Source: Mariprofundus ferrooxydans PV-1 (GTDB lineage: Bacteria; Pseudomonadota; Zetaproteobacteria; Mariprofundales; Mariprofundaceae). From it: a stretch of 64,000 nucleotides of DNA. Shown here piece by piece: positions 4,879 through 12,806 of the stretch. The stretch lies in assembly GCF_000153765.1 (NCBI RefSeq), contig NZ_DS022295.1:341828-405827 (forward strand). Reading direction: 5' to 3'. The notes beneath the pieces are model-generated. The model searched no databases and had not been told where the DNA came from. It saw only the letters and a program-made list of their open reading frames with translations. The position numbers were made by a program, and so were the translations under genes. Position 1 is the first letter of the stretch; each line of letters starts with the position of its first letter.

Positions 4879-6378
4879 CTACTTGCCGGCCGGTGCCTCA
4901 ATGACCACATCAATGCGCCGGTTCATTGCGCGGCCACGATCGAATTCATTACTGGCAATCGGACGCACCTCGCCGTAACCGAGTGCCTTCAGGCGTGAAC
5001 CGTCGGCTCCGGCGGCGATCAGGAAGTCGCGCACGGCTTCGGCGCGCTTGAGTGAGAGTCGCTGATTAACTTTGACGTCACCCTTATTGTCGGTGTGGCC
5101 CTCGATACGAATCTTGCGGTCGGCATAGATGGCGAAAGCCTCTTTGACCTGACCGAGCATATCATAATATTTGGCGTTTATTTTGCTGCTGCCGCTGGCG
5201 AATTTCAGTGCACTCAGGCGCATCAGTATGGAACCGTCCAGATTGGCCAACAGCTCTACCTGATTCGGTTTGAACAGTGCGCGCAAGCGCTGCTGGCGCT
5301 TCTGCTCATAAGTTTCCCGCTCAAGCTTGGCCTGGAAGGCCTCCTTGATATTGCTCATCTGACTCTGCTGGGCTTTGGAGAGCTGACTTGTCTCTTCGGC
5401 AAGACGAGCCTTTAGCTCCGTTTCATACTGCTGTTTAAGTTGCACGCGCTCTGCTTTGCGGGCCTTGCGCTCTGTAGCGAGGGTCTGCTTCATCTCACGC
5501 ACGGCTGCAATGATTTTTGCCGGCTGGGTGCGGGAGAGCATCGGATTATTCGAGTCGGTATCGATATCCAGCAGCGTGGCAAGTTTGAACCTGAAATCGC
5601 GCTGCTTCAGGATGATAGCTTCATGACTGCCGGTGTCTCTGCGCCATACTTTTACCTGCTGGGCGATATGCCGGGCCTCCTGTGCCAGATACAAGGCCAC
5701 TTCAGGGTGAGCCGGAGCTGTGTGATTGATGCCATCGACATAGGCGCGCAGGGCAGCGGCTTTTTGTTTGGCGATACCGTACATCACGGGTGAATATTGT
5801 TTGGCGCCGGCATGGGCTGCTTTAGCGACCTCGCTGTCGGCCATGTCAGCCAGCTGCGGCATCGCCTGATTGAGCACCTTGCGATAGTCGGTCAGCGCAT
5901 CGTTTGCAAAGCGCTGGGTCTGATTCAGGTCACCCTGCTCATGGGTGGCGATTGCCTGCGCTACGGCCTTGTTGGCCTGATCCATGATCTGTGCAAAGGA
6001 TGCTGCATCATCGGGCTGACCGGATGAGGCAATGATTTTTGTGATTGAAGTGGCTGCCTGACGCATCTCCAGCAGTGACTTGAACCGCTGATGAAAGTCG
6101 GTTGCTGTCTCCCTGGCTTCAGTCAGTGAAGCTTCTGCCTGAGCCAGTGCTGCAGATTCATCATCCGCCTTCTGCTGCTGGCTGGCCAGCATGGCCGCAC
6201 CCAGATAGGCCTCAGCCCGCTCAATGGTCTTCGGTGCGTAGATGCTCAGATTACTCTGTTTGAAGGTGTCGATGTTGCGGCGTGTGGTGTCGGTGTTTGT
6301 ATCTGCTGCAAAGAGGGGGGTTGCCCAGATCAGCAGCGCGGCGATCGCCGCTATCGATGTAGTCGTTTGCTTATCCAA
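4879..6378 (-). CDS. OmpA-family cell-wall-binding protein with long helical N-terminal region
   Basis: A 499-residue exported protein with a signal peptide ending in PLFAADT. A long alanine/glutamine-rich helical region follows (about 30-370) with strong coiled-coil character near 300-365. The C-terminal OmpA domain (about 380-495) has IEGHTDNKGD and FDRGRAMNRRID, the residues that bind meso-diaminopimelate in peptidoglycan. The protein most likely spans the periplasm, tethered to the wall by the C-terminus. Its ATG overlaps the end of nadA by 8 nt, so translation is probably coupled, although no metabolic link is apparent. Confidence 0.82.
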   Translation of the reverse strand: MDKQTTTSIAAIAALLIWATPLFAADTNTDTTRRNIDTFKQSNLSIYAPKTIERAEAYLGAAMLASQQQKADDESAALAQAEASLTEARETATDFHQRFKSLLEMRQAATSITKIIASSGQPDDAASFAQIMDQANKAVAQAIATHEQGDLNQTQRFANDALTDYRKVLNQAMPQLADMADSEVAKAAHAGAKQYSPVMYGIAKQKAAALRAYVDGINHTAPAHPEVALYLAQEARHIAQQVKVWRRDTGSHEAIILKQRDFRFKLATLLDIDTDSNNPMLSRTQPAKIIAAVREMKQTLATERKARKAERVQLKQQYETELKARLAEETSQLSKAQQSQMSNIKEAFQAKLERETYEQKRQQRLRALFKPNQVELLANLDGSILMRLSALKFASGSSKINAKYYDMLGQVKEAFAIYADRKIRIEGHTDNKGDVKVNQRLSLKRAEAVRDFLIAAGADGSRLKALGYGEVRPIASNEFDRGRAMNRRIDVVIEAPAGK

Positions 6379-9594: not shown

Positions 9595-9689
9595 CTAATG
9601 AATAGGAGGGAATTATGTCCAATTATATATGCAAATAAAACAAGGAATTATTTCCTCGTATCAACACTGTTATGTGATCAAGGATAGAG

Positions 9690-10505
9690 ATGAGAGCTTT
9701 TAGCAATCTTGAGAAGCAGTTAGTGCGAAGAATGATAGAGCTTGAGGATAAAGTGGGCTCACTCAACATTTTGGGCAACATTCTAGACTCATTCTATGGA
9801 AAGACTCATCTTCCTGATCACTGCTACATAGAGCTAGAGAGTGAGCGTGATGTTTCCATTCAGGTTCGTGATGACGCATTGGCTCAAAATGGGCTGGATT
9901 GGATAAGAGAGATAGACGAGGATATTTCGAAGAAATTACTTACGGTGGTTGCTCTATTTCAATATCTAGAAGAGGAAAAGCTGGCGTATTTTGTTGGAGA
10001 CTTAAGTCTTAATAGTTTAGGAGAAGTCTGGTCTGACACCAAATACACAAGGTGTGAGTTTTTGGATAATGACCTTAAGCCATTAATATTCAAATACTCT
10101 AGAAAGAAAATATTTGTCTCTGAAACCCTGCGTATCTTAGAGAAAAATGATTTCAAGACCGATGAAGAGCTGAGGCATGAAGAGGAAGTTTCATCAATGA
10201 AGAAGCAACTCGGCCTGACTCAAGTTGCTCTCGGTATTACACTTTTAGGTCTTTTGGTTTCGATATTTATTCCAATATTAGTAACTTCTACCGTTGAGAT
10301 CGAAAAAAGTGATCTCCCTAAACCCCTTGCTACGCTTGAGAACCAACTGAAAAGAATAGGTGACATTGAGAAAGCGTCGAACGAAAGCATTGGAGATTTA
10401 GAGTCAGCTATCCTGTCCGTCCAGGAATCAATTAATAACTTGGGCGCACCCAAGTCCAAGCCACATAACCAGAAAAATCAGCCGACCGCTGATAGCGGCG
10501 GCTGA
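9690..10505 (+). CDS. Unknown membrane-anchored protein, first gene of the Shedu island
   Basis: I do not recognise this 271-residue protein. Residues 1-175 form a soluble, charged domain. A single hydrophobic helix (about 176-199) is followed by a hydrophilic, heptad-like helical segment (about 205-250) and a polar tail. AAGGA sits 6 nt before the ATG. Base and codon use is AT-richer than in ilvD. The last 13 or so codons lie inside the attC-like hairpin at 10463-10519, as happens for cassette genes that run into their attC site. A GTTATGT sequence at 9669-9675, 15 nt before the start, could be the left cassette boundary. Its position next to Shedu suggests a defence or cassette accessory role (inference). 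Confidence 0.7.
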   Translation: MRAFSNLEKQLVRRMIELEDKVGSLNILGNILDSFYGKTHLPDHCYIELESERDVSIQVRDDALAQNGLDWIREIDEDISKKLLTVVALFQYLEEEKLAYFVGDLSLNSLGEVWSDTKYTRCEFLDNDLKPLIFKYSRKKIFVSETLRILEKNDFKTDEELRHEEEVSSMKKQLGLTQVALGITLLGLLVSIFIPILVTSTVEIEKSDLPKPLATLENQLKRIGDIEKASNESIGDLESAILSVQESINNLGAPKSKPHNQKNQPTADSGG

Positions 10506-10519
10506 TTTTGACGTTATGC
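10463..10519 (+). other. attC: Integron attC-like recombination site (57 bp)
   Basis: Outer boxes ACATAAC (10463-10469) and GTTATGC (10513-10519) pair at 6 of 7 positions. Between them, an 11-bp arm (10474-10484) pairs with 10499-10509, and an inner CCGC/GCGG pair closes a 5-nt loop. A single unpaired A at 10485 lies on one side only, like the extrahelical base of attC sites. The size of 57 bp and the order R'', arm, loop, arm, R' fit attC, and the centre resembles the aadA-type site. A rho-independent terminator is the main alternative, because TTTT follows the GC stem. No integron integrase is visible in the window. Confidence 0.6.
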
Positions 10520-10549
10520 CCTTAAAATGTTTTCAACCACAAATTCAAA

Positions 10550-11740
10550 ATGAATTCTAAAACTGCCCGGATTGATAAATGGACTAAACGAGATTTTATA
10601 GAGATCCCGTTCACGTCTTCAAATCCTGATTTCACCAAAGATGATGAAAACGTGTCTAACTACCTCACAAGGGTAAAAAAACGTTACAAAGGTAAAGAAG
10701 ATACCGAGGAAATCTACAACTTGTTTTCTCAAAGTGGGATCATAAAAGCTGCCAGGGAGTTGATCTACAACGTTAAAAATGGAGCTCCTGTTTTCCACGT
10801 AATCGGATATTCGTTTAACGTCAGCAGAGCAACATTAGAGTTGGGTCATCTTATCGATATCATTATAGAATCAACAGACGAAAAAGAAATCAGCGAGGAA
10901 ATAAAAAACACCTTGGCAATTGCCTCTATTGAAGAGGTGCCAGTTTATCCTAATATAGAGGAATTGGCAGAGGAGCTATCAAGACACTACCGTGATATGA
11001 TGATTGAAGGTTTTGAAGCCCCCGATGGGAAAGGGGGAAAAATGAGACTCAAGCTCACAAAATCACCAGGGAGAAAAATAGAAACAATCCACTATTTAAA
11101 TGACATTTTGCTAAATGAACCACGACATCCATCAGAACTTACATTAATTCGGGCAGCTGTTCAAAAAGAACTTGGAAAACTAAATAAAGCAAATCAGTTA
11201 ATTAGTATTCTTGAATTAGCAATTAATGAACTTGATGAATTGCTAAAAGCAAAAAAGAGAAATGAAAACAAACTTCAATCATGCCTGACTAATAATCCAA
11301 TACTTTTTGGTCTAGAATATCAGAAAATTATTCCAAAATATAGATTGGGGTCAGAATATGAAACGGATTATGCTCTAGAGCGTTATTCCGGGATAATAGA
11401 TGTACTGGAAATTGAATCAAGCAATCTACAAGTGTTTAACAAGAATGGAGATCCTTCTCAATATTTAACACATGCAGAGCAACAAGTTATGGATTGGTTG
11501 CAATGGATTGAACGAAACCATCCATACGCAAGGGAATCACTCCCCGGCATTACAAGACCTGTAGGCTTTGTGGTTATTGGGAGATCAAACAAGCTCGATA
11601 AAAAGCTTAAGCAGAAACTGCTACATCGAAATACTATGTTTCGTGGTAATCTTGAAATTCTTACATTTGATGATGTTCTGCAAAAAGCAAAAACAATGTT
11701 GAATATTTTATCAGGAACCAAATCTTTAAAAAAGGCATAA
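10550..11740 (+). CDS. Shedu-type antiphage nuclease (DUF4263)
   Basis: A 396-residue single-gene defence protein. The C-terminal half (about 240-390) has the DUF4263 / SduA pattern: a helical lead-in ending LTNNPILFG, then ETDYAL, VLEIES, HAEQQVMDWLQWIERN, GFVVIGRS and LTFDDVL. This is a PD-(D/E)XK-like nuclease core with Asp, Glu and Gln in place. The usual ExK position reads EIE here, a form I believe also occurs in part of the family. Residues 1-235 are an N-terminal region I cannot assign; Shedu N-termini vary and are thought to carry sensing. The ATG lies 30 nt after the attC-like boundary, and the stop codon overlaps a GCATAAC box, so the gene has cassette-like limits. Composition is AT-rich compared with the flanking core genes. 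Confidence 0.82.
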   Translation: MNSKTARIDKWTKRDFIEIPFTSSNPDFTKDDENVSNYLTRVKKRYKGKEDTEEIYNLFSQSGIIKAARELIYNVKNGAPVFHVIGYSFNVSRATLELGHLIDIIIESTDEKEISEEIKNTLAIASIEEVPVYPNIEELAEELSRHYRDMMIEGFEAPDGKGGKMRLKLTKSPGRKIETIHYLNDILLNEPRHPSELTLIRAAVQKELGKLNKANQLISILELAINELDELLKAKKRNENKLQSCLTNNPILFGLEYQKIIPKYRLGSEYETDYALERYSGIIDVLEIESSNLQVFNKNGDPSQYLTHAEQQVMDWLQWIERNHPYARESLPGITRPVGFVVIGRSNKLDKKLKQKLLHRNTMFRGNLEILTFDDVLQKAKTMLNILSGTKSLKKA

Positions 11741-11785
11741 CAAAATCATACACCGGAAACTTGGCCGTAGGCCAAGTTTCCGGTG
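11735..11785. repeat. GCATAAC box plus perfect 16-bp stem hairpin after Shedu
   Basis: GCATAAC (11735-11741) overlaps the Shedu stop codon and is the exact complement of the GTTATGC box in front of the gene. A perfect 16-bp inverted repeat follows (11751-11766 with 11770-11785, 3-nt loop). As an attC it is incomplete: it has no GTTRRRY box after the hairpin (GTAAATC is found there) and no extrahelical base. It could be a truncated attC or a strong terminator. Confidence 0.6.
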
Positions 11786-11797
11786 ATCGTAAATCGC

Positions 11798-11848
11798 AGG
11801 GTCAGGCCTATACTTTATAGAAAAACTACAAGGTATAGGCCTGACCCT
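11798..11848. repeat. Perfect 16-bp inverted repeat containing the GGGTCAG core
   Basis: AGGGTCAGGCCTATAC (11798-11813) is repeated exactly in inverted orientation at 11833-11848, with 19 nt between. It resembles a REP/BIME-like element of the GGGGTCAG type. It lies between the Shedu gene and the next membrane-protein gene. Confidence 0.75.
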
Positions 11849-11902
11849 AAGGGGCATCAATGTTTCGATGTGACAGCTTGAGATGGTATATGTTTGGGAG
11901 GG

Positions 11903-12703
11903 ATGATGGACTGGTTAGAAATTGTTAAGGTTTCTTTTCAAATTGTATTTTGGTTAATTATTTCAATAGTTACAATACTTACTTACAGGCGTGCTCGCCG
12001 TACTATATTGCAGCCAATTCGAACTGAAGTATTTAAATTGCAATTAGAAGAGATGGCTAAAGTTCTTAAGATATTCTCAGGAAAAACGGAAATTGAGTTA
12101 CGGGATGATTATTCTTTCGAAAAAATATTCTATGTTAATGCTTGCCGGATGTATGATGATTATGCAGAGATTTTTTTTGATATAAAAAATGATCCAAAAG
12201 GTCGCCCATACAATCGCAATGAATGTCCTGTCAGCATGTTTTCAAAAGAGTATGCAGAAGAAAATCTCATATTGATGGATAGTCATTTAAAAGATGATTC
12301 TTCTATTGAACAAAATAACGAGCCAATAGATTTAAGAGTTAGGGCTGCACGCTGGCATAAATATGCTTATGGGGAGCTCCACATTCCAAAAGAGTTCTCA
12401 GATTTTGAGAAGAACCTTAATGATTTATTGGAAAACCCTTTGCTTCCATTGCAATTAGTGACACAAATTCAATCTTATCAATATCTTGTGGCTGAGAACT
12501 TAACAATGATTGGAAAACTGCTGGAGGAGAAGGCTCAAGAAATGGACGATAAATACCCTACTGTTGAAAAACTCCAACAGTCTTCGTACGACTGGATACA
12601 CACACTGTATGTTGAGCGCTTTAAAACGCTGAAACCAACAGCAGATCAGATTGCATTATATGTACGATCATACTTCAAGACAGATGAATTAATGAATGAG
12701 TAA
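11903..12703 (+). CDS. Unknown N-terminally membrane-anchored protein of the Shedu island
   Basis: About 266 residues, not recognised. One hydrophobic helix near the N-terminus (about 8-27) is followed by the basic stretch YRRARR, which predicts a cytoplasmic body. The rest is charged and mostly helical. The 5' end reads GGGAGGG-ATGATG: ATG 11906 has the better spacing to the GGAGG, ATG 11903 and TTG 11894 are alternatives, and I list 11903. The gene is strongly AT-rich, like the other island genes. It may be an unrelated cargo gene or a membrane effector next to Shedu; nothing in the sequence decides. Confidence 0.65.
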   Translation: MMDWLEIVKVSFQIVFWLIISIVTILTYRRARRTILQPIRTEVFKLQLEEMAKVLKIFSGKTEIELRDDYSFEKIFYVNACRMYDDYAEIFFDIKNDPKGRPYNRNECPVSMFSKEYAEENLILMDSHLKDDSSIEQNNEPIDLRVRAARWHKYAYGELHIPKEFSDFEKNLNDLLENPLLPLQLVTQIQSYQYLVAENLTMIGKLLEEKAQEMDDKYPTVEKLQQSSYDWIHTLYVERFKTLKPTADQIALYVRSYFKTDELMNE

Positions 12704-12754: not shown

Positions 12755-12806
12755 GTCGGGGTCAGGCATGAGTCGGGGTCAGAGTCGGGGTCAGAGTCGG
12801 GGTCAG
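12755..12806. repeat. Four copies of GTCGGGGTCAG
   Basis: Copies start at 12755, 12772, 12784 and 12796 (spacing 17, 12, 12). The outer two continue into GCATGA. One more CTGACCCCC in inverted orientation lies at 12907-12915. Together with 9569-9594 these bracket the three AT-rich cargo genes. Confidence 0.75.

What the first reader, a model, noticed from the sequence alone, without database searches (positions are those of the whole stretch)
10463..10519. attC-like site at the 3' end of the first island gene
Seen: complementary 7-nt outer boxes (ACATAAC and GTTATGC), a paired stem with one single-sided unpaired A, and a total of 57 bp, which is the shape of an integron attC. The Shedu start lies 30 nt after the box and its stop overlaps GCATAAC, so the Shedu gene has cassette-like limits. 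No integrase is visible. Defence genes in integron cassettes are known in principle, so a Shedu cassette would fit.
Basis: partly seen in the sequence, partly recalled or inferred. Interest (0 to 1): 0.72.

Follow-up and report, generated by a model that had tools for sequence, protein, structure and literature searches.

The report
Integron cassette carrying a Shedu gene
The hairpin is a real integron recombination site (attC): it ends the first of two captured gene cassettes, the second being a predicted anti-phage Shedu gene, in an integron that has kept its docking site but lost its integrase, one of several such remnants in this iron-oxidising bacterium.

Summary
A covariance model built only from attC sites beside integrases in other genomes scores 10463-10519 at 37.2 bits (E 3e-7 in the window; controls at most 16 bits), and the site shares the canonical attC spacing. 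The cassette ends fit exactly: R'' of the first site is the reverse complement of GTTATGT at 9669-9675, just before ORF1, and its R' is the reverse complement of GCATAAC at the Shedu stop. The sequence before the first cassette (9600-9669) is an attI: its homologues lie directly upstream of intact intI in three relatives. The locus is attI, ORF1 cassette, attC1, Shedu cassette, and an attC2 that has lost its R' box. The genome (genus Mariprofundus, 99.75% complete) has no intI over cut-off, yet carries further orphan attI sites of two classes, with cassettes holding other predicted defence genes (PD-T7-4, Uzume, PDC-S47, a TIR-Mrr pair). Shedu in integron cassettes, arrays without integrases and integrons behind ilvD are already known. 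What is unusual is one integrase-free genome holding at least five, probably six, loaded attI platforms of two classes.

The parts
9600..9669 (+). attI site (class B): docking site, insertion point G9669|T9670
   Evidence: Homologues at 73-86% identity lie directly upstream of intact intI in three relatives (G090, G034, G028) and beside an intI fragment in G013; aligned to ...CAACACTG|TT
9670..10513 (+). Gene cassette 1 (844 bp)
   Evidence: Left end GTTATGT is the exact reverse complement of attC1 R'' ACATAAC, the only match within 4 kb upstream
9690..10505 (+). ORF1, 271 aa, unknown; one hydrophobic (putative membrane) stretch, no family; stop codon lies inside attC1
   Evidence: no Pfam family above cut-off; no homologue in 73 other family genomes
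10463..10519 (+). attC1: R'' ACATAAC, bulged A at nt 23, R' GTTATGC
   Evidence: 37.2 bits, E 3.3e-7 with model R1; bottom-strand hairpin z -7.3
10514..11790 (+). Gene cassette 2 (Shedu); right limit approximate because its R' box is lost
   Evidence: Left end GTTATGC pairs exactly with R'' GCATAAC at 11735-11741
10550..11740 (+). SduA (Shedu) nuclease gene, 396 aa
   Evidence: PADLOC SduA PDLC00389 E 2e-172; Pfam SduA_C E 3.4e-16
11735..11790 (+). attC2 remnant: R'' and 5' arm intact, 3' arm altered, R' box missing
   Evidence: 5' arm identical at 22 of 23 nt to a complete attC elsewhere in the genome (C3:224237); full model gives only 8.5 bits; hairpin z -9.0
11799..11847 (.). Inverted repeat GGGTCAGGCCTATAC...GTATAGGCCTGACCC directly behind attC2; may have removed its R' box
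   Evidence: read from sequence; the role is inference

Best explanation
10463-10519 is an integron attC, the recombination site at the 3' end of the first of two gene cassettes. An integron integrase, now absent from this genome, inserted the ORF1 and Shedu cassettes behind the attI at 9600-9669 by recombining the folded bottom strand of a circular cassette's attC with attI, cutting between G and TT. Cassette 1 is 9670-10513. Cassette 2 starts at 10514, carries Shedu, and has an attC that has since lost its R' box. Shown: the attC match, the exact cassette limits, the attI homology, the lack of intI, and the absence of the block in one congener. Inferred: the recombination events themselves, that both cassettes arrived through IntI, and that an IntI in trans could still excise cassette 1. 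Cassette 2 probably can no longer be excised precisely on its own.
For: (1) Model R1, built from 10 attC sites beside integrases in other genomes, gives 37.2 bits, within the range of those attC; controls reach at most 16.1 bits. (2) Same register as canonical sites: 15-nt 5' arm, bulged A at nt 23, 14-nt 3' arm. (3) The R''/left-end match is exact for all six attC and for attC2; in reference arrays R'' is the exact partner of the preceding R' in 48 of 52 consecutive pairs. (4) The left flank is an attI found directly upstream of intact intI in three relatives. (5) attC2's 5' arm matches another attC of this genome at 22 of 23 nt. (6) Congener G005 lacks the block; neither gene has a homologue in the relatives searched.
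Against: No intI over cut-off in the genome, so present activity is unproven. attC2 fails the full model (8.5 bits). In attC1 the second extrahelical base is shifted into the spacer (A-A mismatch in the canonical register). The hairpin also passes a simple terminator scan. Only one congener shows the empty locus.
Confidence: 0.94

Rival explanations
1. The hairpin is only a transcription terminator behind ORF1 and resembles an attC by chance.
For: The A-run, GC stem and T-run pass a terminator scan on both strands. A stable hairpin after a gene is common.
Against: A terminator explains neither the spaced R''/R' boxes (37.2 bits), nor the exact 7-nt partners at both cassette left ends, nor the attI before the first cassette. 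An attC can also terminate transcription, so the two roles do not exclude each other.
Confidence: 0.02
2. The cassettes were inserted by an integrase at a non-attI genomic site (attG) behind ilvD.
For: attG insertion of cassettes into genomes is established (Loot et al. 2024, cited in PMC11023631 and PMC12444791). The left flank does not match the other attI class of this genome.
Against: The left flank matches integrase-linked attI of relatives over about 70 bp, ending at the insertion point.
Confidence: 0.03
3. On origin (compatible with the best explanation): the attI-cassette block reached this locus as a unit on another element or by recombination between GGGGTCAG repeats, rather than by loss of intI from an integron already here.
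For: CTGACCCC/GGGGTCAG repeats bracket the block (9569; 12758-12806). No intI remnant lies between ilvD and attI. The genome has several attI copies.
Against: The repeats are common in this family and absent from the stretches taken around two of the other loaded attI loci (L140, L143). In M. erugo an intI N-terminal remnant lies beside an orphan attI, which favours deletion of intI there.
Confidence: 0.35

Closest known systems
CALIN (cluster of attC sites lacking an integrase; IntegronFinder 2.0, PMC9024848)
   Same: attC-bounded cassettes with no integrase nearby or anywhere in the genome
   Different: An attI is kept; only one attC at this locus is intact, below the default threshold of two; several attI-led loci of two classes in one genome
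Xanthomonas chromosomal integron downstream of ilvD (PMC12444791)
   Same: Cassettes directly behind ilvD, progressive loss of intI, Shedu reported among cassette defence genes
   Different: Different class of bacteria; short array; the ilvD neighbourhood may be coincidence, as no intI was seen next to ilvD in the Mariprofundus genomes examined
Defence-gene cassettes of chromosomal and mobile integrons (Darracq 2025, Getz 2025, Kieffer 2025, cited in PMC12444791 and PMC12409362)
   Same: Small anti-phage genes carried as integron cassettes
   Different: Here the arrays are scattered, short and without integrase; defence activity not tested

Membership tests
integron attC site | R''/R' boxes with conserved AAC...GTT core | tested here: met
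   ACATAAC / GTTATGC
integron attC site | Imperfect bottom-strand hairpin with extrahelical bases at conserved distance | tested here: met
   Bulged A at nt 23, 15/14-nt arms as in reference sites; second extrahelical base shifted to the spacer
integron attC site | Covariance model score clearly above background | tested here: met
   37.2 bits, E 3.3e-7; controls at most 16.1 bits. Own model, not the IntegronFinder model
integron attC site | Recombined by IntI as folded bottom strand | not testable with these tools
   needs a recombination assay
integron gene cassette | Left end is the complement of the cassette's own R'' and lies just before the gene | tested here: met
   7/7 for cassette 1 and cassette 2
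integron gene cassette | Complete attC at the 3' end of the Shedu cassette | tested here: not met
   R'' and 5' arm present, R' missing, 8.5 bits: decayed cassette
complete integron | attI site | tested here: met
complete integron | intI gene | tested here: not met
   No TIGR02249 hit over cut-off in the genome; no remnant upstream of attI
CALIN | At least two attC sites without integrase | tested here: inconclusive
   One intact and one decayed attC in the window; another locus of this genome holds four
Shedu (SduA) | SduA_C (DUF4263) nuclease domain | tested here: met
Shedu (SduA) | Protection against phage | not testable with these tools
   needs a phage assay

The most novel reading that the evidence does not exclude
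In Mariprofundus, attI sites work as a scattered set of docking platforms of at least two integrase classes. They are loaded largely with defence cassettes and served in trans by integrases that come and go, so that a genome with no integrase still keeps a distributed integron (here five, probably six, loaded attI loci).
Probability: 0.25. Interest if true: 0.75.

Novelty: new member of a known kind. Interest (0 to 1): 0.55.

Why it matters
It places an anti-phage Shedu gene in an integron cassette in Zetaproteobacteria, for which two literature searches found no description of integrons. It shows how integrase-free remnants can be recognised by attI homology plus exact cassette limits even when only one attC is intact. 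The genome-wide set of attI platforms makes a question testable: are orphan attI sites still used when an integrase arrives from elsewhere?

Tried and rejected
Terminator-only reading: rejected on cassette limits and attI. attG insertion: considered while the left flank looked unlike the other attI class, dropped. Shedu relatives in genome contigs and plasmids: none in genomes, only distant plasmid hits. Rfam: one unrelated hit (cspA). The first MAFFT alignment of 39 attC had mixed arm lengths and was replaced by 10 sites in one register; selecting one register could favour sites with the same arm length, though the window was not used. A second model was not built because the pooled alignment A3 contained the window site. 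ORF3 (11894-12703) could not be shown to be a cassette: no attC follows it.

Full report
CHECK. The 57-bp element is exactly as described. Its bottom strand folds as DNA far better than shuffles (z -7.3). The boxes pair at 6 of 7 positions.

MODEL. Integrase genes were located in relatives, and hairpins with attC boxes were collected beside them on the expected strand. Ten sites in one register gave covariance model R1; nothing from the window was used. R1 recovers long arrays in the reference loci and scores the window site 37.2 bits, the only hit in 64 kb at E up to 10. 282 kb of control DNA yields at most 16.1 bits. The canonical reference sites carry a bulged A 15 nt after R'' and a 14-nt 3' arm; the window site has both.

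CASSETTE LIMITS. A circular cassette has one attC, so in the inserted form its left end must complement its own R''. ACATAAC (attC1) pairs with GTTATGT at 9669-9675, 14 nt before the ORF1 ATG at 9690. GCATAAC at the Shedu stop pairs with GTTATGC, the R' of attC1. All six attC sites have exactly one such partner within 4 kb, close before an ORF start. In four reference arrays R'' is the exact partner of the preceding R' in 48 of 52 consecutive pairs. attC2 is decayed: its first 23 nt match a complete attC elsewhere in the genome at 22 positions, but its R' is gone and R1 gives only 8.5 bits. A GGGTCAGG inverted repeat lies directly behind it.

attI. The 70 bp before cassette 1 have homologues directly upstream of intact, divergently oriented intI in G090 (C33), G034 (C137) and G028 (C2), next to an intI fragment in G013, and at a second place in this genome (C4:1318273-1318331). 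The alignment ends at ...CAACACTG|TT, the insertion point.

GENOME. No intI passes the cut-off (the weaker hits look like XerC/D-type recombinases, as in the control genomes) in a 99.75% complete, four-contig assembly. A second attI class (RATAYKTRYRYHYATTAATAWG|TT), found near intI in G034 and G004, occurs at four loaded places and one apparently dead place here, and in other Mariprofundus genomes (named records M. micogutta and M. erugo). With the window that makes five loaded attI loci supported by the attC model. The second class-B locus (C4:1318k) has an exact left-end/R'' pair and a hairpin but no model hit, so it counts as probable. Cassette genes include PD-T7-4, Uzume UzuA, PDC-S47/Abi_alpha, a TIR-Mrr pair and a methyltransferase. 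The cassette walk was run one base off for the window, so the window limits rest.

ORIGIN. Congener G005 has ilvD followed directly by the metallo-hydrolase gene, without the block. No Shedu homologue at E below 1e-25 was found in 397 other genomes of the phylum, and no ORF1 homologue in 73 other family genomes. How intI was lost here is open. In M. erugo an intI N-terminal remnant sits beside an orphan attI, so deletion is one documented route.

KNOWN OR NEW. Arrays without integrases, defence genes in cassettes, and Shedu in Xanthomonas integrons (which sit behind ilvD) are published. The locus is a new member of a known kind. The number of loaded orphan attI sites of two classes in one integrase-free genome is the unusual part; one narrow literature search found no description, which is weak evidence of novelty.

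Noticed in passing
L140 (own genome C4:879003-882233): Orphan class-A attI followed by a short array of cassettes with predicted defence genes PD-T7-4, UzuA and PDC-S47/Abi_alpha plus an unknown 175-aa gene; four attC by model.
   Followed up: partly
L141 (own genome C3:1316774-1318271): Orphan attI with one cassette holding a TIR-Mrr gene and a 184-aa gene matching PDC-M36A.
   Followed up: partly
L142 (C3:992230-992756) and L143 (C3:223392-225059): Further orphan attI loci, one with an 8xMP-like gene (below Pfam cut-off), one with a methyltransferase and an unknown gene.
   Followed up: partly
L224 (own genome C4:841839-841862): attI-like copy with G to A at the insertion point and no cassette; a second similar stretch lies about 745 bp upstream.
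   Followed up: no
L144 (M. erugo G002 C11, locus 5510-5716): N-terminal intI remnant (55% identity over 69 aa) directly beside an orphan attI.
   Followed up: partly
L031, L035: The class-A integrase has an N-terminal extension of roughly 100 aa before the usual IntI domain; in G004 the gene lies downstream of a cassette in the same direction.
   Followed up: no
window 9569, 12758-12806, 12907: CTGACCCC/GGGGTCAG repeats bracket the block; similar short repeats are scattered through the family.
   Followed up: partly
window 11894-12703: 269-aa ORF with no family above cut-off between the Shedu cassette and the repeats; not shown to be a cassette.
   Followed up: no
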